A stretch of DNA of 43,835 nt from a virus. The position numbers were made by a program, and so were the translations under genes. The DNA is taken from the IMG/VR virus record IMGVR_UViG_3300048924_000297, positions 1 to 43,835 of that record, one strand, 5' to 3'. Below, in pieces: positions 2,061 through 39,463 of the stretch. The notes below the pieces were generated by a model. The model was not told the DNA's origin. It ran no database searches and saw only the letters and a program-made list of their open reading frames with translations. Within the stretch, counting starts at the first letter, position 1. Every line of letters starts with the position of its first letter.

Positions 2061-4028
2061 ATGAAGATGCCCCCGAAGATCTACAAACCGCATATCGACG
2101 GCATGAGGTCGGTCGCCGTCATGGCTGTGATCGCCTACCACTATGGCGCAACCTGGCTCCCGGGAGGGTTCACCGGTGTAGATATCTTCTTCGTCATTTC
2201 GGGATTTTTGATCACAAGCAACATCTGGGCTGCCACCCAAAAAGGCGAGTTTTCGCTCGTTGAATTCTACTCGGGGCGGATCAGGAGGATCCTGCCGGCG
2301 CTACTCATCACCATCACCTCAGCAATGATAGCTGCCAGCTTTGTGCTGACCCCTGGAGACATGAGTTCATTGGCCGCCAGCGCCAAGTACTCTGCGTTGG
2401 GATTTGGAAACTTCTACTTCTATGCGAACACCGGATACTTCGACCGAGAAGCGGAGCTTCAACCCCTCTTGCACCTTTGGAGTCTCGGCGTCGAGGAGCA
2501 GTTCTACCTGCTATGGCCAGTCTCGCTTTTGGCTATATCCTTGTTCAAGCCTACATCGAGAACAGTGCTCTGGATGGTTGGCGCAGCGGCTCTCATGAGC
2601 ATAGTTCTGAGCGAGTACCAGCTTGGCACAAATCCAAAGGCCGCCTTCTACTTGCCGGGGGCCAGGGCATGGGAGCTGCTGTCAGGCGCTCTGATCGCGT
2701 TCATTCCGAAGACCAGATCGTCCACCACGGGAAAGCTTGCGAGCGCTGTGGGCGTCGCCCTGGTGATTGCTAGCCTTTTCCTCATTTCTACGGATTTGGC
2801 TTTTCCTGGCGTTTACGCGCTACCTGCCGTTCTTGGAACAGCACTAATCATTCTACCTAAGGAGATCGACGCCCTCACGGCGGTTCTTTCCTTTCGCCCG
2901 ATAGTTTGGATAGGCAAAATCTCATACTCCCTTTACCTATGGCATTGGCCGGTTCTTGTTCTCTTTCGCCATTACGCCAACGGCGAAGAACCCAGATGGT
3001 ATGAAGCATTGGCGCTCTTTGTCTTGACCCTCGTATGCGCCGCTGTCTCGTGGAGGATCGTCGAAACCCCGATCCGCAACGCAAAGCAATTCAAAATCCC
3101 CGCATTGCTTTTGGGGGGGACAGCGATGGTCGTCACCAGCTTGTCCGCGAGCCTTGTCACAGCTCGGGGTGGTCTCATTGGCACAGCCAGCGACGAAGCT
3201 AGATCAGTCATCAGCCTGTCCGAAATGTGGGAATGGCGCTGCCCACAACTCATCGAAGTCGCTGGCATTAAAGAAAAGCTATGCGTGTTCGGAGAGAAAT
3301 GGGAGCTGGCACCCAATAAGCTAATCCTGTGGGGGGATAGTCACGCTGATCATATGGCGCCTTTGGTTGAATCTGTACTCCCAAAGGGCACGTCTGTGTT
3401 GCTGGTTAATAACTGTCCGGCCGCCTTGGGAGGAAGCATTTTCCGTTTCCGAAACGACATGCCCGACTACGCCAAAGAATGCTCTCATCGACGACAGGCG
3501 GTTTTCGATATTGCTCACCGCGACAAGGCGGTTCGAGGCGTCATCTTTGCCGGCAGCTGGGTGCCGCTACTACCAGGCCTAGCCGGTGGGCCCGACGACG
3601 CGACAGGCTTTTCTCGTCTGCAGATTGGGCTTGAGGAGGCAATATCGGGCTTACCAAAGAAGGTTGTGATTATCGGTCAGTTTCCTCGGAACGATATTTC
3701 CTTTGTTGAATGCAGGATCGCGCAGACATTCAACCGTGTGAGACGCGCGTGCCCCGACCCACAGCCTGCTTTCGAAGATACCCTTGAGAAATATGGACGA
3801 GCCGTTGACTCAATCTTCAATTCGATTGCCAAAGAACACCCAGGCAAAGTCAGGGCGGTTTCAGTTGAAAAAGGGTTTTGCGCCAGCGGAAGATGCCTCG
3901 TGGAAATCAACGGCGAGATGATCTACCGCGATAGCATCCACATTCGCAGAAACTTGACGCAAGAGACCAAGCTCGAACTGGCGGAGCGCATCGACCTTCC
4001 GAATGCCATCGATTGGCTACTGCGCTAG
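2061..4028 (+). CDS. Acyltransferase-3 (OafA/YrhL) protein with SGNH domain
   Basis: The 655-residue protein has the two-domain layout of surface-polysaccharide O-acyltransferases. The first 370 residues hold about ten membrane helices and the acyltransferase-3 signatures: HIDGMRSVAV at residues 11-20, His27, FTGVDIFFVISGFLIT, and SGRIRRILPA. The C-terminal part is an SGNH hydrolase-like domain with GDSH at 425-428 and a distal D624-x-x-H627. Family knowledge says it moves acetyl or another acyl group from the cytoplasmic donor onto envelope or exopolysaccharide sugars. It runs against the late operon (24 bases from the convergent fibre-assembly gene) and looks more AT-rich than its neighbours, typical of a moron gene. 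I infer lysogenic conversion of O-antigen or exopolysaccharide, possibly blocking superinfection. Confidence 0.9.
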   Translation: MKMPPKIYKPHIDGMRSVAVMAVIAYHYGATWLPGGFTGVDIFFVISGFLITSNIWAATQKGEFSLVEFYSGRIRRILPALLITITSAMIAASFVLTPGDMSSLAASAKYSALGFGNFYFYANTGYFDREAELQPLLHLWSLGVEEQFYLLWPVSLLAISLFKPTSRTVLWMVGAAALMSIVLSEYQLGTNPKAAFYLPGARAWELLSGALIAFIPKTRSSTTGKLASAVGVALVIASLFLISTDLAFPGVYALPAVLGTALIILPKEIDALTAVLSFRPIVWIGKISYSLYLWHWPVLVLFRHYANGEEPRWYEALALFVLTLVCAAVSWRIVETPIRNAKQFKIPALLLGGTAMVVTSLSASLVTARGGLIGTASDEARSVISLSEMWEWRCPQLIEVAGIKEKLCVFGEKWELAPNKLILWGDSHADHMAPLVESVLPKGTSVLLVNNCPAALGGSIFRFRNDMPDYAKECSHRRQAVFDIAHRDKAVRGVIFAGSWVPLLPGLAGGPDDATGFSRLQIGLEEAISGLPKKVVIIGQFPRNDISFVECRIAQTFNRVRRACPDPQPAFEDTLEKYGRAVDSIFNSIAKEHPGKVRAVSVEKGFCASGRCLVEINGEMIYRDSIHIRRNLTQETKLELAERIDLPNAIDWLLR

Positions 4029-25461: not shown

Positions 25462-26265
25462 TCAGGCCTTTTCAATAACTTGCGAGGAAGCTGCAGAAGA
25501 AATGAATTTGGCCCATGGCGCCCGTATAGGACGGAACGGCAGCAAATCATTGCTGAGAAGCCGTCCAGAAAGCGCATTGTGGAGTGTTTCGAGGGCATCC
25601 TGCCAAAGCTGCCACTCCAATCTCGACAGGATCGCACCGCGCAGCGGCGCATCAAGCTCATATTTCTGATAAGCCCCCTTCAACGGCTTTTGCTTTCTTC
25701 GATCAAAGCCATCGACCTCGTACGTATATGATCGCCGAAGGCTATCGCGGCCCTTCGCGATAACGAACCAAGCCGGCTTGCCGTTGATGGTAACAACCTG
25801 CTCGCCAGGTCTCTCTGCCGTCCAATCCGGGCAGGAACCGAGAATGGCGCGGCTGATCACCAGATTGACGACATGCTTGCCGTGAAGGACATCACGCTTG
25901 ATCCGGACCATTTCGAGAAACGCAGCGACTTCCCTGGCGATCAGGCCACGCTCATCGTGCCATTCAGGGAATGGATTCCACCCATCGCCGATTTCAAACC
26001 CGCCTCTGTCAGCCAACTGACGCACGGCATTCCCCGCCTCTACCGCATCCGGGTGTGGGTCGGATTGCGCCATGATGAAATCAGGAATGACACCAAAATG
26101 GTTGGGCGAGCGATCGATCATCGTACCAAGGGCCGAATACTCGCTAATCATTTGCCAGGATGAACCGCTCACAAAGCTGCCGCCACCATTTCCCGAACCG
26201 ATCTTGCAGAGTTCCTGCGTGAAGGCCCAAGTCAGGAACTGCTCAATCGATACTTTCTTTGTCAT
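25462..26265 (-). CDS. Hypothetical protein next to the putative origin
   Basis: A 267-residue protein with an N-terminal helical segment (MTKKVSIEQFLTWAFTQELCK), a Gly-rich turn (GSGNGGGSFVSGSSW), a central ERGLIAREVAAFLEMVRIKR part, a GEQVVTINGKPAWFVIAKGR beta hairpin, and a final Leu/Ala-rich region (LEWQLWQDALETLHNALSGRLLS). No membrane segment. It is the last gene of the leftward early operon and starts inside the iteron region. I do not recognise a family. Its position suggests a replication or regulatory role; nothing in the sequence proves DNA binding. Confidence 0.55.
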   Translation of the reverse strand: MTKKVSIEQFLTWAFTQELCKIGSGNGGGSFVSGSSWQMISEYSALGTMIDRSPNHFGVIPDFIMAQSDPHPDAVEAGNAVRQLADRGGFEIGDGWNPFPEWHDERGLIAREVAAFLEMVRIKRDVLHGKHVVNLVISRAILGSCPDWTAERPGEQVVTINGKPAWFVIAKGRDSLRRSYTYEVDGFDRRKQKPLKGAYQKYELDAPLRGAILSRLEWQLWQDALETLHNALSGRLLSNDLLPFRPIRAPWAKFISSAASSQVIEKA

Positions 26266-26277
26266 TTCAATCCCTCA

Positions 26278-26521
26278 GAGATAGTTGCGATAGTTTTGCG
26301 ATAGTTTAAGAGATAGTTTTATTTAATGATTTCAATTAGTTCGATAGTTGCGATAGTTTTCTCGTATTACATAGGCAGATTTTTCACCCCATTTCCCCGC
26401 CGTTTTTTTTCATACGTATAGGCGAGAAAACTATCGCAACTATCGCAACCCATTGATTTTACTCACCCCACACCCCGCCGAACTGTCGCAAAACTACCGC
26501 TGGAACTATCGCAACTATCGC
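26278..26521. other. Putative replication origin with 12 nonamer iterons
   Basis: I count six GCGATAGTT-type nonamers in one direction (starting at 26278, 26287, 26298, 26310, 26341, 26350; some read GAG- or TCGATAGTT) and six inverted copies (26429, 26438, 26481, 26492, 26504, 26513; two have one change). They surround an AT-rich stretch with a T8 run and the palindrome ATACGTAT at 26412-26419. The region lies right after the primase-helicase gene. Iteron arrays beside a D5-type helicase are typical of phage origins, so this is probably the replication origin; it may also regulate the next gene. Confidence 0.7.
26342..26445. repeat. Perfect 23-bp inverted repeat in the origin
   Basis: Positions 26342-26364 and 26423-26445 are exact reverse complements of each other, with a 58-base spacer holding a T8 run and the palindrome ATACGTAT. 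Each arm contains two iterons and ends in the hexamer CTCG/CGAG at the inside. A cruciform or looped initiator complex could form here. Confidence 0.8.
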
Positions 26522-26558
26522 AACTCAAGCCGCAGGTTAGCGACAGATTGGGAGGTGT

Positions 26559-26578
26559 CGGGTGGGGTTTCGGGGTCA
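26559..26578. repeat. 20-bp direct repeat, copy at the primase-helicase stop
   Basis: The 20 bases ending at the primase-helicase stop codon are identical to 28303-28322 near the start of the same gene. Downstream of the stop, the minus-strand frame still encodes DPETPP, as in the first copy. It may be a small duplication. Confidence 0.75.
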
Positions 26579-28408
26579 TGGAAACTCCTCAGGGAATGGC
26601 ACTTCATCATCGAAGCGGCCTGCCGGCGGTGCGGGTGTATCCCCATGCCCTTCCGGAACGTCGCGCAGGCGGACGCCAAGGTAGTAGTGAAGCCTCTGGG
26701 ACGTATCCTTCTTGAATTTCTTGGACATCGCTCGCCCGAAGGCCGTGACATTCATCGGCTTGCCGCCCTCGTCTTCCGTGAAGCGACAATAGGCGGAGTA
26801 CAGGAACTTGGCCTGTAGCGGGTCCGCCTGCTCATCCCTGACCACACATCGAGCGACGAAGGCGGATGTTCTGTCCATATCGTCGCGGTATTCTTGCGTG
26901 GCGCTGCGCACCGCGTCAGGGATCACCAGTCCCTCCTTGAGGTAGATTTTCACTCCCTCGATCAACCAGTTCAGAATGCCGGGATATTCTGACCGGAAGT
27001 ACGCGAGCATCTCCTCGAACTCCCGCCGCTCGGCCTCGGGCACCTTCACCGGCCAGTGAACGACGGCCATGCGCCGCCAGATGCCATCGTCGTTCCCTGA
27101 TATCTTCGGATAGCCGTTGCCACTCATCTGGACGACGAAGATTGGGTCGAAATCCATGTACCCGGCGAAGAGGTCGCGTGCGGTGATCGTCTCGCCGCCG
27201 GTCAGCTCCTTGACGAGGTTCTCCTTGAGATCCTCTCCCTCGGGCAGTTCCTTGACGCGTAGCAGCCTGCGTCCAAGCAGGCGCGCAAGGTCAGGCGAAG
27301 CGCCTCCGGATGACCCGCTCTCACCAATCAAGCTGGTTGCAGGCAGCGTCACCGCCATCTCTCCCAACAACCGGCTGAGTGTCTCCATGTAGACTGACTT
27401 GCCATTTGCGCCGTCGCCGTAATGGAAAAACAGGAATTGCACGGTGATGCCGACGAGGCCTAGGCCTGATGACACCTGGACAAGCCGGCGAACAGCAGCA
27501 TCCGGCAGCATAGTTTCGAGAAACCTGACCCAACGCGGGCACTCGGCCTTCGGCTCGAACCGAACCGGAGCGATATGCGTGATTAGATCTTCACGTACAT
27601 GGCCTTTCGTCACCTTCACAGCCGCCTCGATGCAGACATCAATGGTCTCAGGCACGTTGGGCGTTTCTTCCCGGCTCACGAATTTCTCGTTCTTCTTGCG
27701 CTGCATTTTACGTTCGAACCGAAGGGTAGCGTTCTGCACCGCGAAGCGCATTCTATCTGCATTCAGTTCGTCTGGAGCTTTGATGATATGCGGCGCCGAG
27801 CACGCCAGTGCGGCATTCATGCGGGCGATGTTCTTCGAGGAAACCGCATGATCCATGCGCCTCTTGACGCGCTTGCCGAAAGCATCAAGTGCCTTTTCGC
27901 GGGCAGCGATGAGCCGTCTGCCGCTGACATCGACGTCCTCGCCACGTTGGTCCATCTCGGCCGCAGCCTTGCCCGCTTCGATCTTCTCCTGCTCCGACTG
28001 CGTCGGCTTGATCCAATGCCGCTCCTGGGCAATCCGGTCACCGAGCTGCTGCGCAATCGCCAGTGCCTTCGGTCCGCCGTTGGCAATATCCCAGTGGGTT
28101 CCGGTCCACACGCCGAACAACGCCTGCTTTGCCTTCTCCTGAGCAACAACGAGCAGATCCTGCCCGAAATGCTTCAACAATCGTTTGCCGTTGTCGGTGT
28201 CGGAGTGATCGAGGCCGGCGCAATATTCGAGAATGGCGCGAAGATCGTCGTCAGACGGCGGCGGAGCCAGATCATCGAGAGTTTCGGCAGAATCGTCTGA
28301 GACGGGTGGGGTTTCGGGGTCAACGCCCCGCTGCATCATGGCGTCCTGCACGATCTCCTTGAGACCGGCAGGCATCGCCGCCGAAAGTTCGTCCTGCATT
28401 CCCCTCAT
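26576..28408 (-). CDS. D5/P4-type primase-helicase
   Basis: The 610-residue protein has the phage/plasmid primase P4-type helicase domain. The Walker A motif GDGANGKS is at residues 331-338 in FFHYGDGANGKSVYMETL; later come LARLLGRRLLRVKELPEGE (Walker B region), KELTGGETITARDLF, and VVQMSGNGYPKISGNDDGIWRR (sensor/arginine region). The N-terminal 300 residues include a D5_N-like helical part. It should unwind the origin and may act with the Toprim-type protein encoded just before. The ATG at 28408 overlaps that gene (ATGA) and has GAAAGGG upstream. The iteron cluster follows its 3' end. Confidence 0.93.
   Translation of the reverse strand: MRGMQDELSAAMPAGLKEIVQDAMMQRGVDPETPPVSDDSAETLDDLAPPPSDDDLRAILEYCAGLDHSDTDNGKRLLKHFGQDLLVVAQEKAKQALFGVWTGTHWDIANGGPKALAIAQQLGDRIAQERHWIKPTQSEQEKIEAGKAAAEMDQRGEDVDVSGRRLIAAREKALDAFGKRVKRRMDHAVSSKNIARMNAALACSAPHIIKAPDELNADRMRFAVQNATLRFERKMQRKKNEKFVSREETPNVPETIDVCIEAAVKVTKGHVREDLITHIAPVRFEPKAECPRWVRFLETMLPDAAVRRLVQVSSGLGLVGITVQFLFFHYGDGANGKSVYMETLSRLLGEMAVTLPATSLIGESGSSGGASPDLARLLGRRLLRVKELPEGEDLKENLVKELTGGETITARDLFAGYMDFDPIFVVQMSGNGYPKISGNDDGIWRRMAVVHWPVKVPEAERREFEEMLAYFRSEYPGILNWLIEGVKIYLKEGLVIPDAVRSATQEYRDDMDRTSAFVARCVVRDEQADPLQAKFLYSAYCRFTEDEGGKPMNVTAFGRAMSKKFKKDTSQRLHYYLGVRLRDVPEGHGDTPAPPAGRFDDEVPFPEEFP
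28303..28322. repeat. 20-bp direct repeat, copy near the primase-helicase start
   Basis: Identical to 26559-26578. In this copy it encodes DPETPP inside the N-terminal linker of the primase-helicase. Confidence 0.75.
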
Positions 28409-29649
28409 GCCCTTTCGCAAAGTAAGCTGGCGAAATCCGCGCCCTGCGGAGGCCACCAGATATGAATGTCACGACCTTGCGCCGAGAGCCGAGCCTTGGC
28501 TCGAGCCATCGCGGCGGCCGTGAAGTAGAATTCGCTGTCACCATCGGCCAGCAGCACCAGTGCGCTCACATGCTGTGGCAACTGGATCGCCTCGTCTTTC
28601 GACTGGTCGGGCTTGGGATGCGGCCAGAACGACACCTTTCGGCCGCCAATCTGATAGCTCTCGCTGCGCCCTTTGCCGCGATCGGCCGGACCGGAAAGAT
28701 TTCCGAGATCTCCAGCCGCGAAATAAAACGTATCGGTTCTGAAACCCTCGAAGCCAGCAACCGCCAGGACGGTCTCGATCCCCTCACCGCCCATCCAGCG
28801 CCGAGACGTCATTTCGCCGAGGATAGGAACGAGCGATCCCTTCTTGATGCCGCGCATCTTCTTTGTCGTAAGGCGATCACCCTTGGCATCGTGGCCGAGG
28901 TCTGGCCGAAACTTCGGCCCGTTTCTCAAGTCAATCCACGTCTCGTGGCAACCGGTCACCTGACCGTCGAGCGTCACAAACGGCGCAATCATCGCCGGTC
29001 CTGAATGAATGGACAGCGGCCGGCCGAACTCGTCGTTCCCGTCCCAATAGCTGTGTCGTCCATCGAAACGAAGATTGAAGAAGGTCTCCATCGGCACGAT
29101 GTATCCGGTGCGGCGGCGCAGGTAGGTCCGGATATAGCGGGCACCATCTGTCGTTTCGTCCGCGCATTCCTGTGCGTTGAAATAGATGCCGCGAGCCTTC
29201 TTGATCTCGCGTTCGCGAAAATCGTTCTGCTGGCGATCACGATCGGCCCGCTCTTTCTGCAGCTTACGTTCGCTTTCGTCGCGCCGACGCTCTCGCTCTG
29301 CCCGCTCGTCATCGGTCTCGCGCTCGCCACCAGCCGGGATTTCTTCTCCCAGCACCGCAGCGCAGGCGCCGAGAAATCCGGACCTCAATTTGGTGTCGTG
29401 ATGCAACAGGAAGGCGGCCAGACTGATGCCGTCACGTCCGCCAATCTCGCAATTGCGGCAGTTCCAGACCTGCTTTGAGCCGTTGATTGAAAAGCGGTCA
29501 TTGCCGAAGCAACGCGGGCAAGGCTGACCGGTGTCACCTGACCAATCGTTGCGCCGCTTTGGGAAAGGCACGTCCAGGCGCAAGGCGGCGTCGGTCACTG
29601 ACACCGCCTTTGCGCGAAAAACAAAGTCGTCGAGAACCGGATTGCTCAC
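28405..29649 (-). CDS. Zinc-finger / Toprim-type DNA primase
   Basis: A 414-residue protein with an N-terminal zinc-binding domain (C44, C47, C64, C67 in CPRC and CRNC), a long charged coiled-coil linker (ERAERERRRDESERKLQKERADRD), and a C-terminal Toprim-like part with GEGIETVLAVAGF and LVLLADGDSEFYF. These match phage primases that make RNA primers; the partner helicase is the next gene. Start GTG at 29649 shares its G with the previous TAG (TAGTG). The linker is unusually charged for the family. It ends four bases into the primase-helicase start. Confidence 0.9.
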   Translation of the reverse strand: MSNPVLDDFVFRAKAVSVTDAALRLDVPFPKRRNDWSGDTGQPCPRCFGNDRFSINGSKQVWNCRNCEIGGRDGISLAAFLLHHDTKLRSGFLGACAAVLGEEIPAGGERETDDERAERERRRDESERKLQKERADRDRQQNDFREREIKKARGIYFNAQECADETTDGARYIRTYLRRRTGYIVPMETFFNLRFDGRHSYWDGNDEFGRPLSIHSGPAMIAPFVTLDGQVTGCHETWIDLRNGPKFRPDLGHDAKGDRLTTKKMRGIKKGSLVPILGEMTSRRWMGGEGIETVLAVAGFEGFRTDTFYFAAGDLGNLSGPADRGKGRSESYQIGGRKVSFWPHPKPDQSKDEAIQLPQHVSALVLLADGDSEFYFTAAAMARAKARLSAQGRDIHIWWPPQGADFASLLCERA

Positions 29650-36213: not shown

Positions 36214-36457
36214 AAACCCAGACAAACCTGTCCTCAATGCAATCGCCGGAGCGATCGACGATGCACTGAACGGCCCAAAGATCGACGGACGTCGCTTGGG
36301 CAACACGGCGTTCGCCGTCATCATTTTCGAAAACGATGGCAGCAACGCCACGCTCGCAAGCTTCGTCTCCAATGCCGAACGGCGCGACGTGCATGTCGCG
36401 ATGAAGGAAATGGTCGCCCGGTTCGACGGACAGGCCGAATTGAGAGGTCACGCCTGA
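36203..36457 (+). CDS. Small early protein (84 aa)
   Basis: An 84-residue protein with an N-terminal acidic helix (NAIAGAIDDALNGPKIDG) and a beta strand core (NTAFAVIIFENDG). AAGGCGG precedes the ATG and its stop overlaps the SSB start. No family recognised; the position suggests a role in replication. Confidence 0.55.
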   Translation: MPTENPDKPVLNAIAGAIDDALNGPKIDGRRLGNTAFAVIIFENDGSNATLASFVSNAERRDVHVAMKEMVARFDGQAELRGHA

Positions 36458-36969
36458 TGGCCGGCTCTGTCAACAAGGTGATCCTTATCGGCAACGTGGG
36501 CGCCGACCCCGAGATTCGCCGTACCCAGGATGGCCGACCAATTGCCTCGATCCGCCTCGCAACATCCGAAAGTTGGCGTGACAAGACCTCCGGCGAGCGG
36601 CGCGAAAAAACCGAATGGCATAGCATCGTCGTCTTCGCCGAGCCGCTCTGCAAAGTCGTCGAACAGCACGTGAAGAAGGGCTCGAAGCTTTACATCGAGG
36701 GGCAGCTGCAGACCCGCAAATGGCAGGACCAGCAGGGTCAGGACCGCTATTCGACAGAGGTCGTTCTGCAGGGCTTCGGATCGACGATCACAATGCTGGA
36801 TAAGCGCGAGGGTTCCGGGTACCGCGCCGGCGGCGAGGGTCCGGGAGATTACGGCCTCGACGAGGATCGCGCCTCCAGGAGCCAGTCGCACGGCGGCTCC
36901 AGCGGCCAGCCAGCTAACTTCTCCCGCGATCTCGACGACGACATCCCATTCGCGCCCGAGTGGCGCTGA
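36457..36969 (+). CDS. ssb: Single-stranded DNA-binding protein
   Basis: A 170-residue SSB of the bacterial type. The OB fold includes SVNKVILIGNVGADPEIR, ASIRLATSESWRDK, EWHSIVVFAEPL and GSKLYIEGQLQTRKWQDQ. The Gly/Ser-rich linker leads to a tail with DLDDDIPFAPEWR, so the usual DDDIPF acidic tip is followed by five extra residues. It coats single strands during phage replication and recruits partners. The ATG is coupled to the previous stop. Confidence 0.95.
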   Translation: MAGSVNKVILIGNVGADPEIRRTQDGRPIASIRLATSESWRDKTSGERREKTEWHSIVVFAEPLCKVVEQHVKKGSKLYIEGQLQTRKWQDQQGQDRYSTEVVLQGFGSTITMLDKREGSGYRAGGEGPGDYGLDEDRASRSQSHGGSSGQPANFSRDLDDDIPFAPEWR

Positions 36970-36989
36970 TAACCCGAGAGGACATCATC

Positions 36990-37328
36990 ATGAAGCTTAT
37001 CCAGAACGGTCAGGCACTCATCGGCATGCTCGAGTCCGGCGAGTTGAACGAGCGCCTGACCGAGACCTGCGATGCCACCTTCAGCGAGTTGCTCGACATG
37101 AGCAACGAGAACCCGAAGGTCAAGTTCAAGGGCGAGATCAGTCTCAAGCTGAAGCTCGAGGTCGCAAACGGCATGATTACGATCAACGCCGATGTCGCTG
37201 CCAAGACCCCAAAGCGCAGCTATCGCTCGTCTGCCTACTGGATCACCGAAGGCGGCAAGCTTTCGACCGAGCATCCCCAGCAACACGACATGTTCAGCGG
37301 CCCGCGCGAAGCCCGCGACCGCGCCTGA
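36990..37328 (+). CDS. Hypothetical protein with possible clamp-binding motif
   Basis: A 112-residue protein beginning MKLIQNGQALIGMLESGELN, with a beta-rich middle (KVKFKGEISLKLKLEVANG) and a C-terminal stretch HPQQHDMFSGPREA. The pentapeptide QHDMF (residues 98-102) resembles the bacterial beta-clamp binding motif QLxLF. It lies between SSB and DUF2303 and close to the phage's own clamp gene, which makes this interesting. The start is at 36990 because GAGAGGA precedes it. The function is otherwise unknown. Confidence 0.6.
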   Translation: MKLIQNGQALIGMLESGELNERLTETCDATFSELLDMSNENPKVKFKGEISLKLKLEVANGMITINADVAAKTPKRSYRSSAYWITEGGKLSTEHPQQHDMFSGPREARDRA

Positions 37329-37361
37329 CCTTTTCACTCCAACCCATAGAGGGGCAACATC

Positions 37362-38276
37362 ATGGACCAAATGACCGCACCTGCCGTCCGGGAAATCGCC
37401 GATCTGGCGCGCGACGGCAAGTTTCAGATTTTCTCGGTATCGACGCCGGGCCAGGCCAAAGGCCTGCCGACCGCTTTCCCGGTCCTGCTCGACCCGAAGA
37501 CCGGCAAGGCCGCCAGTATCAAAGCTCTCGCCGACGAATGGCGCCTGACACCGGACCGCAAGCGCGGCAGCGCCGAAGTCACCACGCTCGAAAGCTTTAT
37601 CGACCTGGTCGAACGGCACAAGACGGAAAACTCGGTGATCTTCGCCGACACGGATTGGAGAAACCCGTCCCTGACGGCGGTGATCGACTATCATCCGAAG
37701 GACGCGACTGACGCCGATAACGGCAAGCACCGCATCCATTACGAGTTTCCGCTGTCCGATAGCTGGAAGGCATGGAACGAGATCAACGGCCATCCCCTGC
37801 CCCAGGTGCAGTTTGCCGAGTTTATCGAAGACCGGATCATGGACCTCGCTGCGCCGGATACGCTTGAGGAAGAAGACTGGCGCCACAAGTTTTCGTTCCG
37901 CGTCGCCTTCCCGAATGAGCTCGTCGCGCTGTCCAAGGGATTGCAGATCAACTCCGAGGCCAAGGTCAAGAACGCCGTTTCGCTTCAGTCCGGCGAAGCT
38001 CAGATCGTCTTCGAAGAAGAGCACCGCGACGCAGCCGGTAACAAGATCGACGTGCCCGGCATGTTCATTCTCTCGGTCCCGCCCTTCTATCGCGGCGACG
38101 TTGCTCGCATCCCGGTTCGGCTGCGCTACCGCCTTGCCGGCGGCCAGTTGAAGTGGATCTGCCAGCTCTACCGGCCGGACATCTACATCACCGAGCAGGT
38201 GATCCGCGACATGGAACGTGCCTGCGCAGATACCGGCCTTCCGGTCTACTCCGGCGGTCCCGAGATGCCCGCCTGA
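37362..38276 (+). CDS. DUF2303 family phage protein
   Basis: The 304-residue protein fits DUF2303 (YfdQ-like): TTLESFIDLVERHKTENSVIFAD, LTAVIDYHPKDATDAD, HRIHYEFPLSDSWKAWNEING and FAEFIEDRIMDLAAPD follow the family in order. C-terminal beta region FILSVPPFYRGDVARIPVRLRYR. The family is found in early phage operons near SSB and recombination genes; its activity is not known to me. AGGGGC precedes the ATG. Confidence 0.88.
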   Translation: MDQMTAPAVREIADLARDGKFQIFSVSTPGQAKGLPTAFPVLLDPKTGKAASIKALADEWRLTPDRKRGSAEVTTLESFIDLVERHKTENSVIFADTDWRNPSLTAVIDYHPKDATDADNGKHRIHYEFPLSDSWKAWNEINGHPLPQVQFAEFIEDRIMDLAAPDTLEEEDWRHKFSFRVAFPNELVALSKGLQINSEAKVKNAVSLQSGEAQIVFEEEHRDAAGNKIDVPGMFILSVPPFYRGDVARIPVRLRYRLAGGQLKWICQLYRPDIYITEQVIRDMERACADTGLPVYSGGPEMPA

Positions 38277-38332
38277 TCGCTCGGCGGGTGGCGGTGACGC
38301 CGCCCGCCTACCTCTTTCCCGGAGATTTGCAG

Positions 38333-39463
38333 ATGTTCATGGCTGAAAAGTCCGCTCTCATGGCTGCCCTCGCACTGACTGCCAGTGTGGTCGAGCGCCG
38401 CAACACGATTCCGATTTTGCAGAACGTCCTGATCGAGAAGGGCGCGACGTCTGGACATCTCAATGCACGCCTATCGAACCTCGATATCGAAGCATCGACG
38501 CCGTTCATAGCTGATGCCGCAATCGACTTCGAGCCTTTCACCGTTCCCGCCGGCCTCCTGGCTGATATCGTCCGCAAGCTGCCCGATGGCTGCGATGTCG
38601 AGGTCACCCGCCGCAGCAGCTCGCTAGACGGCATCACCATCAAGGCCAGCAAGTTCAAATCCAATCTGCAGGTTCTCCCCGCAAGCGACTTCCCTGCCAT
38701 GCGGGAAGCGAACGGCGAGCTTCCACATAAGCTTACCATCCCGGCCGCCGATCTCGCCGCCGCGCTGTCTGCCTGCGGCTTCGCAATGTCGACAGAAGAG
38801 ACACGCTTCTACCTCAACGGTGTTTATCTGCATCCGACATCAGCCGAGGCCGAACATCAGGGAGTCATTCTTGTTGCGACTGACGGCCATCGCCTGTCGA
38901 AACGCTTTGTCGCCGCCGAGAGCAACCCGGAGATGCCCGGCATCATCATTCCCCGCCAGTCAGTCAAGGTCATCGAGAAGGTGGTCCCGAAGACCGGAGA
39001 TATCAGCATCGAATATTCGGAGAGCCTGGTGCGGGTCTCCTATGGCGCCGGCGTCATCACCTCCAAGCTCGTCGACGGCACCTTCCCTGATTACCGCCGG
39101 GTTATTCCGCAGGAAGGGCCGATGGCGGTCACCATCGCCGCCGGCTCCCTGACGGCTTCCGTCGATCGCGTTTCGACGGTCAGCGGCGACAAGGGCCGGG
39201 GCGTCAAATTCAACTTCGCAGGCGGCCAGCTGCAGCTGCAGGTCATCAACCCCGACGCGGGCGAAGCCAACGACGAACTCTCATACGACGGCGATGCTGA
39301 AATCGAGATCGGCTTCAACGCAAAGTACGTCAACGAGATCCTCGCCAACCTGGATGGCGACAACGTCCTGATGAACCTGACCGATCACGGCAGTCCGACC
39401 GTGCTCCGAAATCCCGGAGCCCATCCCGAAAACCTGATCGTGCTTATGCCGATGCGCGTGTGA
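38333..39463 (+). CDS. dnaN: DNA polymerase III beta subunit (sliding clamp), phage-encoded
   Basis: A 376-residue full-length beta clamp. Conserved features are AALALTASVVERRNTIPILQNVLIE, LIVATDGHRL-like LVATDGHRLSKRF at residue ~180, VRVSYGAGVITSKLVDGTFPDYRRVIP, and the C-terminal LIVLMPMRV matching the standard VxMPMRL. It encircles DNA and tethers polymerase. Chromosomal copies lie beside dnaA; this one is in a phage early operon after DUF2303, so it is an extra clamp. GGAG precedes the ATG by 8 bases. Without a phage polymerase gene, host Pol III would have to use it. Confidence 0.93.
   Translation: MFMAEKSALMAALALTASVVERRNTIPILQNVLIEKGATSGHLNARLSNLDIEASTPFIADAAIDFEPFTVPAGLLADIVRKLPDGCDVEVTRRSSSLDGITIKASKFKSNLQVLPASDFPAMREANGELPHKLTIPAADLAAALSACGFAMSTEETRFYLNGVYLHPTSAEAEHQGVILVATDGHRLSKRFVAAESNPEMPGIIIPRQSVKVIEKVVPKTGDISIEYSESLVRVSYGAGVITSKLVDGTFPDYRRVIPQEGPMAVTIAAGSLTASVDRVSTVSGDKGRGVKFNFAGGQLQLQVINPDAGEANDELSYDGDAEIEIGFNAKYVNEILANLDGDNVLMNLTDHGSPTVLRNPGAHPENLIVLMPMRV

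What the first reader, a model, noticed from the sequence alone, without database searches (positions are those of the whole stretch)
26278..26521. Iteron-rich putative replication origin
Twelve GCGATAGTT-like nonamers, six per direction, surround an AT-rich centre with a T8 run and ATACGTAT, including a perfect 23-bp inverted repeat. The block is directly after a D5-type primase-helicase. The sequence is much more regular than any other non-coding region in the window, so an initiator-binding origin is the simplest explanation.
Basis: partly seen in the sequence, partly recalled or inferred. Interest (0 to 1): 0.65.

Follow-up and report, generated by a model that had tools for sequence, protein, structure and literature searches.

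The report
Phage replication origin with switchable address
A 310-base gap in a rhizobial phage genome carries twelve copies of a nine-letter word arranged as two mirror-image sets of six; it is very probably where the phage starts copying its DNA, and across dozens of related phages the word changes in step with one amino acid of the neighbouring helicase, which suggests how phages re-address their origins.

Summary
Twelve GCGATAGTT-like nonamers, six per direction, lie at 26278-26521, against 0.08 expected, between a D5-type primase-helicase gene and a phrog_9306 gene. Most of 82 distinct related loci with enough sequence keep the layout (tandem pair, single, single, tandem pair, then the mirror image), while the iteron letters change: GCGATAGTT, TGGATAGTT, CTGACAGTT, CTGACCAGTT, GCGAGGGTT, TGCACCAGTT and others. 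In 72 loci with readable iterons, base 2 is C exactly when wing residue 588 of the primase-helicase is Arg (45/45 versus 0/27). It is the only perfect column of 551, and it holds in 41 loci not used to find it. Gains and losses coincide on the helicase tree. The C-terminal domain folds like the RFX winged helix. The primase-helicase is therefore most likely a self-loading initiator of the SaPI/PICI Rep or P4-alpha kind, binding each half-array as a hexamer. The AT-rich melting candidate is the off-centre linker 26319-26340, not the centre. Swapped terminases argue against a packaging site. Replication itself is untested. Verdict: a new variant of a known kind, with a testable recognition code.

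The parts
26278..26318 (+). outer half-array (pair, single, single): nonamers at 26278, 26287, 26298, 26310
   Evidence: same slots in relatives
26341..26358 (+). inner tandem pair of nonamers (26341, 26350)
26429..26446 (-). inner tandem pair, opposite orientation (26429, 26438)
26481..26521 (-). outer half-array, opposite orientation: nonamers at 26481, 26492, 26504, 26513
26342..26364 (.). left arm of the perfect 23-bp inverted repeat (right arm 26423-26445); it is the inner iteron pairs plus an extension (TTCTCG) not kept in the relatives read
26319..26340 (.). AT-rich linker (86% AT) between inner and outer iterons on the phrog_9306 side; candidate unwinding element
   Evidence: conserved TTGAAATCAnnnAATAAA-like sequence in relatives
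26387..26398 (.). CCCC-ATTT-CCCC tract in the centre (G-tract on the primase-sense strand); role unknown
   Evidence: G3+N1-7G3+ present in this part of the gap in 65 of 82 loci, 17 on the other strand
26446..26458 (-). perfect IHF consensus match AATCAATGGGTTG (WATCAANNNNTTR) abutting the inner iteron pair
   Evidence: exact match in 25 of 72 loci against 1.15 expected
26564..26575 (-). CCCCGAAACCCC box directly after the primase-helicase stop
   Evidence: found in 55 of 82 loci by a loose pattern
26576..28456 (-). D5-type primase-helicase, proposed initiator; the true start is probably an ATG near 28408 or 28399 (relatives have a stop codon in the first 14 codons of this frame)
   Evidence: Pfam D5_N and Pox_D5
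26579..26887 (-). C-terminal winged-helix domain (residues 524-626), proposed iteron-binding domain
   Evidence: Pox_D5 2.9e-5 and RFX_DNA_binding 3.4e-4; best PDB fold match hRFX1-X-box complex 1DP7
26693..26695 (-). codon of wing residue Arg588, which tracks base 2 of the iteron
26810..26812 (-). codon of residue Ala549 (start of helix 1 of the winged helix): Ala, Ser, Gly for C, G, T at base 2 in most loci
28405..29649 (-). separate Toprim primase (DUF7146 + Toprim_3), phrog_510
25462..26265 (-). phrog_9306 protein of unknown function, found by tblastn in 66 of 72 array-bearing loci

Best explanation
The 310-bp gap is the phage's replication origin, and the D5-type primase-helicase encoded next to it is its initiator. 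The C-terminal winged helix of each subunit reads one 9-10 bp iteron. Its beta-hairpin wing lies in the major groove, with Arg588 facing the G opposite C at iteron base 2. Six iterons per half-array place one hexamer on each side, and the two face each other. IHF may bend the linker at 26446-26458. The AT-rich linker at 26319-26340 melts, both helicases move onto single strands, and the separate Toprim primase, phage SSB, phage sliding clamp and host polymerase build two forks. Shown here: the array, its conserved layout, the coupling of iteron sequence to a residue of this protein, and the predicted fold. Inferred: physical binding, one subunit per iteron, IHF binding, melting site and bidirectional replication.
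For: The array is far above chance and adjoins the helicase gene in relatives down to about 45% identity. In 72 loci, C at iteron base 2 coincides with Arg588 45/45 against 0/27, the only perfect column of 551. In 25 new loci called by a fixed pattern, 25/25 agree. Both traits need 8 changes on a helicase-only tree, and all 5 strongly supported independent pairs agree. Window and L006 are sister rows (95% identical over the helicase part) yet differ in both traits. Arg590 occurs in 12 of 15 AGGG-type iteron loci and in none of 57 others. No column of the neighbouring Toprim or phrog_9306 proteins is concordant, even in the close group. The C-terminal model matches hRFX1 bound to DNA (1DP7, E 1.2e-3) and RFX5; RFX wing W1 contacts the major groove (PMC2533330). 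SaPI Rep and Cch2 precedents. PICI origins with two iteron sets directly 3' of rep, and a working rep-ori plasmid. Phage SSB and DnaN.
Against: No replication or binding experiment exists. Covariation shows functional coupling, not contact. For 16 of 72 loci base 2 was aligned by hand. L061, whose iteron could not be aligned, was left out and carries Arg. GC skew shows no turn at the array. The hit to P4's origin-binding domain is weak (1KA8, E 0.69). Several relatives (e.g. L104-L106, L117, L120) show no array directly after the gene, so their origin, if any, is elsewhere. The C-terminal model has only moderate confidence (pLDDT 77.5).
Confidence: 0.85

Rival explanations
1. The repeats are the packaging (cos or pac) site, bound by the small terminase subunit; late genes follow.
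For: The gap lies between early and late genes. In Rhodobacter phage RcapNL, which has a similar array, the deposited record ends inside its right half with an annotated 26-nt cohesive overhang.
Against: Loci with the same GCGATAGTT iterons carry unrelated terminases (TerL 70% identical to the window's in L007, 24% in L009, 26% in L039), while L008 with a 71% identical TerL has different iterons. Iterons follow the helicase, not the terminase. A later paper lists RcapNL as circularly permuted (PMC8601537).
Confidence: 0.05
2. The transcript of the gap forms a long hairpin that regulates expression between the primase-helicase and phrog_9306.
For: The RNA folds at -116.9 kcal/mol, z = -8.1.
Against: Any inverted array folds so. 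In 16 clean loci, units that would pair in the hairpin match each other no better than other opposite units (7.68 against 7.58 of 9 positions; higher in 7 of 16). An RNA hairpin does not explain the coupling to Arg588.
Confidence: 0.03
3. The array is an operator or regulatory site (late-gene switch or autoregulation) rather than an origin, with the primase-helicase or another protein binding it.
For: It sits in a gap between co-directional early and late genes; initiators often also repress.
Against: No sigma-70-type promoter or terminator was found, though phage promoters in these hosts may differ. A strictly kept 6+6 mirror layout beside a hexameric-type helicase is typical of origins.
Confidence: 0.06
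4. The array is an origin, but the phrog_9306 protein encoded next to it is the iteron binder and the helicase is only recruited.
For: phrog_9306 adjoins the array in nearly all loci (66 of 72 by tblastn).
Against: No phrog_9306 column tracks the iteron base (best phi 0.78 against 1.0 for helicase residue 588; best concordance 10 of 12 in the close group). RcapNL keeps a comparable array although its next protein has no evident resemblance to phrog_9306 by eye.
Confidence: 0.06

Closest known systems
SaPI / PICI Rep-ori replication modules
   Same: D5-type (or related) self-loading helicase with a C-terminal origin-binding domain; origin directly 3' of its gene; two iteron sets around an AT-rich stretch; Rep reported to bind as two hexamers (PMC7581432, PMC6092414).
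   Different: Here it belongs to a tailed phage with its own terminase, tail genes and integrase. The primase is a separate Toprim protein. Iterons are 9-10 bp in a fixed mirror layout of six plus six. The AT-rich element is off-centre and an IHF-like site abuts one inner pair.
Cch2 of SCCmec elements
   Same: D5_N/Primase_Cterm helicase whose isolated C-terminal domain binds repeats downstream of its gene (PMC7581432).
   Different: Only three short AAGTG iterons there; no mirror-image array.
Phage P4 alpha protein with ori
   Same: Helicase with a C-terminal winged-helix origin-binding domain; weak profile hit to 1KA8.
   Different: P4 alpha fuses primase, helicase and binding domain and uses two separate DNA sites (own knowledge). 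Here the primase is separate and no second array was found in the window.
RFX winged-helix DNA-binding domain
   Same: Best fold match (1DP7, 8ZJR) and sub-threshold Pfam hit; the wing W1 contacts the major groove.
   Different: A eukaryotic transcription factor domain; no helicase.

Membership tests
SaPI/PICI-type Rep-ori module | initiator is a D5/SF3-like helicase | tested here: met
   D5_N 1.5e-12, Pox_D5; profile hit to 7OLA (listed as DNA primase; identified from own knowledge as a SaPI PriRep), 2.3e-4
SaPI/PICI-type Rep-ori module | C-terminal dsDNA-binding domain sets origin specificity | tested here: inconclusive
   Winged-helix fold and covariation of residues 588 and 549 with iterons support it; no binding assay
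SaPI/PICI-type Rep-ori module | origin directly 3' of the initiator gene | tested here: met
   gap 26266-26575 follows the stop of 26576-28456 (-); same in relatives
SaPI/PICI-type Rep-ori module | two iteron sets flanking an AT-rich region | tested here: inconclusive
   Two sets of six are met; the most AT-rich stretch lies inside one set, between inner and outer iterons, not between the sets
SaPI/PICI-type Rep-ori module | helicase plus ori replicate autonomously | not testable with these tools
   needs a plasmid assay
SaPI/PICI-type Rep-ori module | carried by a satellite that depends on a helper phage | tested here: not met
   The window carries its own repressor, integrase, tail completion protein and the terminase reading frames that relatives share; so it works like a PICI origin but is not a PICI
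P4 alpha/ori | primase, helicase and origin-binding domain in one protein | tested here: not met
   The Toprim primase is a separate ORF, 28405-29649
P4 alpha/ori | winged-helix origin-binding domain at the C-terminus | tested here: inconclusive
   1KA8 found only at E 0.69
Iteron plasmids (Rep_3/RepA type) | Rep_3-type initiator and DnaA boxes in the origin | tested here: not met
   No Rep_3 hit among the neighbouring early proteins; DnaA boxes not enriched, 1 of 72 exact against 3.0 expected
cos/pac packaging site | repeats track the terminase | tested here: not met

The most novel reading that the evidence does not exclude
These phages carry a natural, evolvable origin-address code: changing one or a few wing residues of the self-loading helicase (588, 590, with 549) together with all twelve iterons creates a replicon that no longer cross-talks with its relatives. 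Such switches have happened repeatedly, perhaps to escape titration by resident prophages, satellites or origin-cutting defences.
Probability: 0.4. Interest if true: 0.75.

Novelty: new variant of a known kind. Interest (0 to 1): 0.58.

Why it matters
Self-loading D5-type helicases are widespread in phages, satellites and large DNA viruses, but how they choose their origin at base level is poorly documented. Here dozens of natural variants give a residue-to-base correspondence that can be tested with one protein domain and a set of short duplexes. If it holds, it would allow origins to be located and matched to initiators directly from metagenomic phage sequence, give orthogonal replicons for rhizobia, and make the question of why phages switch origin addresses experimentally open. 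The regular 6+6 layout also offers a clean system for asking how two hexamers are loaded head to head.

Tried and rejected
Blastn of the gap against phage records found nothing, and against plasmids one 57-bp match at 79% identity: only the layout, not the letters, is conserved. GC skew: no turn at 26.4 kb, uninformative. DnaA boxes: not enriched. Sigma-70-type promoters and terminators: none. Packaging site: rejected because terminases are swapped while iterons stay; the cohesive-end annotation of RcapNL was followed up and is contradicted by PMC8601537. RNA hairpin: no unit-specific pairing. phrog_9306 or the Toprim primase as binder: no tracking column. Residue 549 alone as the code: looked perfect in the first 31 loci but fails in some of the new ones (Ala with G or A iterons in four, Gly with C iterons in four), so the wing residue 588 carries the rule. 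L061 could not be assigned and was left out of the 72.

Full report
WHAT IS THERE. The window is an IMG/VR virus record of a temperate tailed phage; its relatives lie in Rhizobium, Mesorhizobium, Aureimonas and Microvirga genomes and in viral contigs. The gap 26266-26575 lies between a D5-type primase-helicase gene (26576-28456, minus strand; D5_N 1.5e-12, Pox_D5) and a phrog_9306 gene (25462-26265, minus strand). It holds twelve GCGATAGTT-like nonamers, six in each direction, including a perfect 23-bp inverted repeat. Simulations that keep the region's own neighbour frequencies give 0.08 copies on average. The spacing is regular. Read in the primase sense, units start at 54, 63, 75, 86, 129, 138 and then, in the other orientation, at 217, 226, 257, 269, 280, 289: tandem pair, single, single, tandem pair, then the mirror image.

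THE LAYOUT IS CONSERVED, THE LETTERS ARE NOT. Two searches for relatives of the primase-helicase gave 83 distinct loci, 82 with enough sequence downstream. Directly after the helicase stop codon most of them have the same element. In order it contains a CCCCGnAACCCC box, four iterons, a linker ending in AAATCAATG, two iterons, a centre with a G-tract, two reversed iterons, an AT-rich linker, four reversed iterons, and the start of a phrog_9306 homologue. But the iteron differs between phages: GCGATAGTT, TGGATAGTT, TGGAGAGTT, CTGACAGTT, CTGACCAGTT, GTGACCACTT, GCGAGGGTT, TGCACCAGTT, GCAACACTT, CACAGGGTT, TGGAGGGTT and GTAGAGGGT. Copies within one locus largely switch together, some loci being mixed. 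Blastn therefore finds almost nothing. Aurantimonas phage AmM-1, Rhodobacter phage RcapNL and Microcystis phage Mae-JY02, whose helicases are only 31-33% identical, carry comparable unannotated arrays in the same place.

WHICH PROTEIN READS THE ITERONS. Concerted switching implies a trans-acting reader. Iteron base 2 (the C of GCGATAGTT) was used as the trait. In the first 31 loci only the primase-helicase had residues that separated the classes, and these lay in its C-terminus. On 72 loci, ranking all 551 helicase columns, one column is perfectly concordant: Arg588 is present in 45 of 45 loci with C and absent from 27 of 27 without. In 41 loci not used to find the rule it holds without exception, including all 25 whose base could be read by a fixed pattern. 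On a tree built only from the helicase part, C at base 2 and Arg588 each need 8 changes, and the five independent pairs on strongly supported branches all agree. Five pairs cannot reach p = 0.05 in that sign test, so the strength lies in the perfect, column-specific match rather than in this p-value. The window and L006 are nearest neighbours (95% over the helicase part) but differ in both iteron and residue. A second wing residue, Arg590, occurs in 12 of 15 loci with AGGG-type iterons and in none of 57 others. Residue 549 (Ala, Ser, Gly for C, G, T) tracks less strictly. Neither the Toprim primase nor phrog_9306 has a concordant column. Limits: base 2 was aligned by hand for 16 loci; L061, which carries Arg and an unalignable iteron, was left out; near-copies are present among the rows.

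WHAT THE DOMAIN LOOKS LIKE. Pfam gives Pox_D5 (2.9e-5) and a sub-threshold RFX_DNA_binding hit (3.4e-4) for the last 103 residues. A profile of 56 sequences against the PDB ranks RFX5, hRFX1 and the P4 origin-binding domain first, all weak (E 0.12-0.69). The AlphaFold2 model of this domain (pLDDT 77.5) matches the hRFX1-X-box co-crystal 1DP7 (E 1.2e-3, probability 1.00) and RFX5, followed by the C-terminal part of a large-virus primase-helicase. Residue 588 lies in the wing loop and 549 starts helix 1. In RFX proteins wing W1 contacts the major groove (PMC2533330), which fits a wing arginine reading the G opposite C. That contact is inferred.

HOW IT PROBABLY WORKS. [quoted passage not shown] PICI origins lie immediately 3' of rep with two iteron sets flanking an AT-rich region, and a rep-ori plasmid was maintained while ori deletion reduced it (PMC6092414). 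Six iterons per half suit one hexamer each. The likely melting site is the off-centre linker 26319-26340 (86% AT; 77% on average in 14 loci, against 52% for the centre). A perfect IHF consensus abuts the inner pair at 26446-26458; such sites are found exactly in 25 of 72 loci against 1.15 expected, mostly in this linker, and upstream of the array in a Mesorhizobium-type group. The phage also encodes SSB and a sliding clamp, consistent with its own replication module.

RIVALS. A terminase site is disfavoured because the same iterons occur with unrelated terminases and different iterons with similar ones. An RNA hairpin is disfavoured because would-be partners match no better than other opposite units, although the RNA is predicted to fold strongly. 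A pure operator cannot be excluded, but no promoter was recognised and the layout is that of an origin. GC skew gives no support.

NOVELTY. The kind of system, a self-loading D5-type helicase with iterons downstream, is known. New here are its fixed mirror layout in a large group of phages of alphaproteobacteria, the repeated concerted replacement of the iterons, and the residue-to-base coupling in the wing. The paper searches made here returned no description of either for these phages, but the library is partial.

Noticed in passing
25462-26265: The phrog_9306 protein (unknown function, 267 aa) adjoins the array in nearly all relatives even where neck and terminase genes are swapped; its start (M-K-x-x-x-I-E-x-L-L-x-W-A-F) is well kept.
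   Followed up: partly
L129:3717-4070, L130:3654-3973, L131:3675-4106: Aurantimonas phage AmM-1, Rhodobacter phage RcapNL and Microcystis phage Mae-JY02 carry the same kind of array after the primase with other iterons (GGGAGGCTA, GGGACGCAA, GGGGAAGAT), none annotated as an origin.
   Followed up: partly
L130:3948-3973 and L132:1-26: RcapNL is annotated with a 26-nt cohesive overhang inside its array, but a later paper lists the phage as circularly permuted; the overhang may be an assembly overlap, or origin and packaging site may be co-located.
   Followed up: partly
26341-26349: The second inner reverse iteron (primase sense) starts with T and then C or A in most loci whatever the rest of the array does, so this slot next to the AT-rich linker may have a constraint of its own.
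   Followed up: no
26387-26398: A G-tract of the form GGGG-n-GGGG (primase sense) in the centre is present in 65 of 82 loci; no role is known.
   Followed up: partly
L036: A more distant relative has TGTACAGAT repeats (three forward, two reverse) after its helicase and a different next gene.
   Followed up: no
28405-28456: The listed GTG start of the primase-helicase ORF is probably too far upstream: close relatives have a stop codon at residue 14 of that frame.
   Followed up: partly
36457-39463: The phage carries its own SSB and DNA polymerase III beta-clamp genes on the opposite strand from the primase genes.
   Followed up: yes
2061-4028: A 655-aa protein that by eye looks like a membrane acyltransferase, possibly modifying host surface polysaccharide; not tested.
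   Followed up: no
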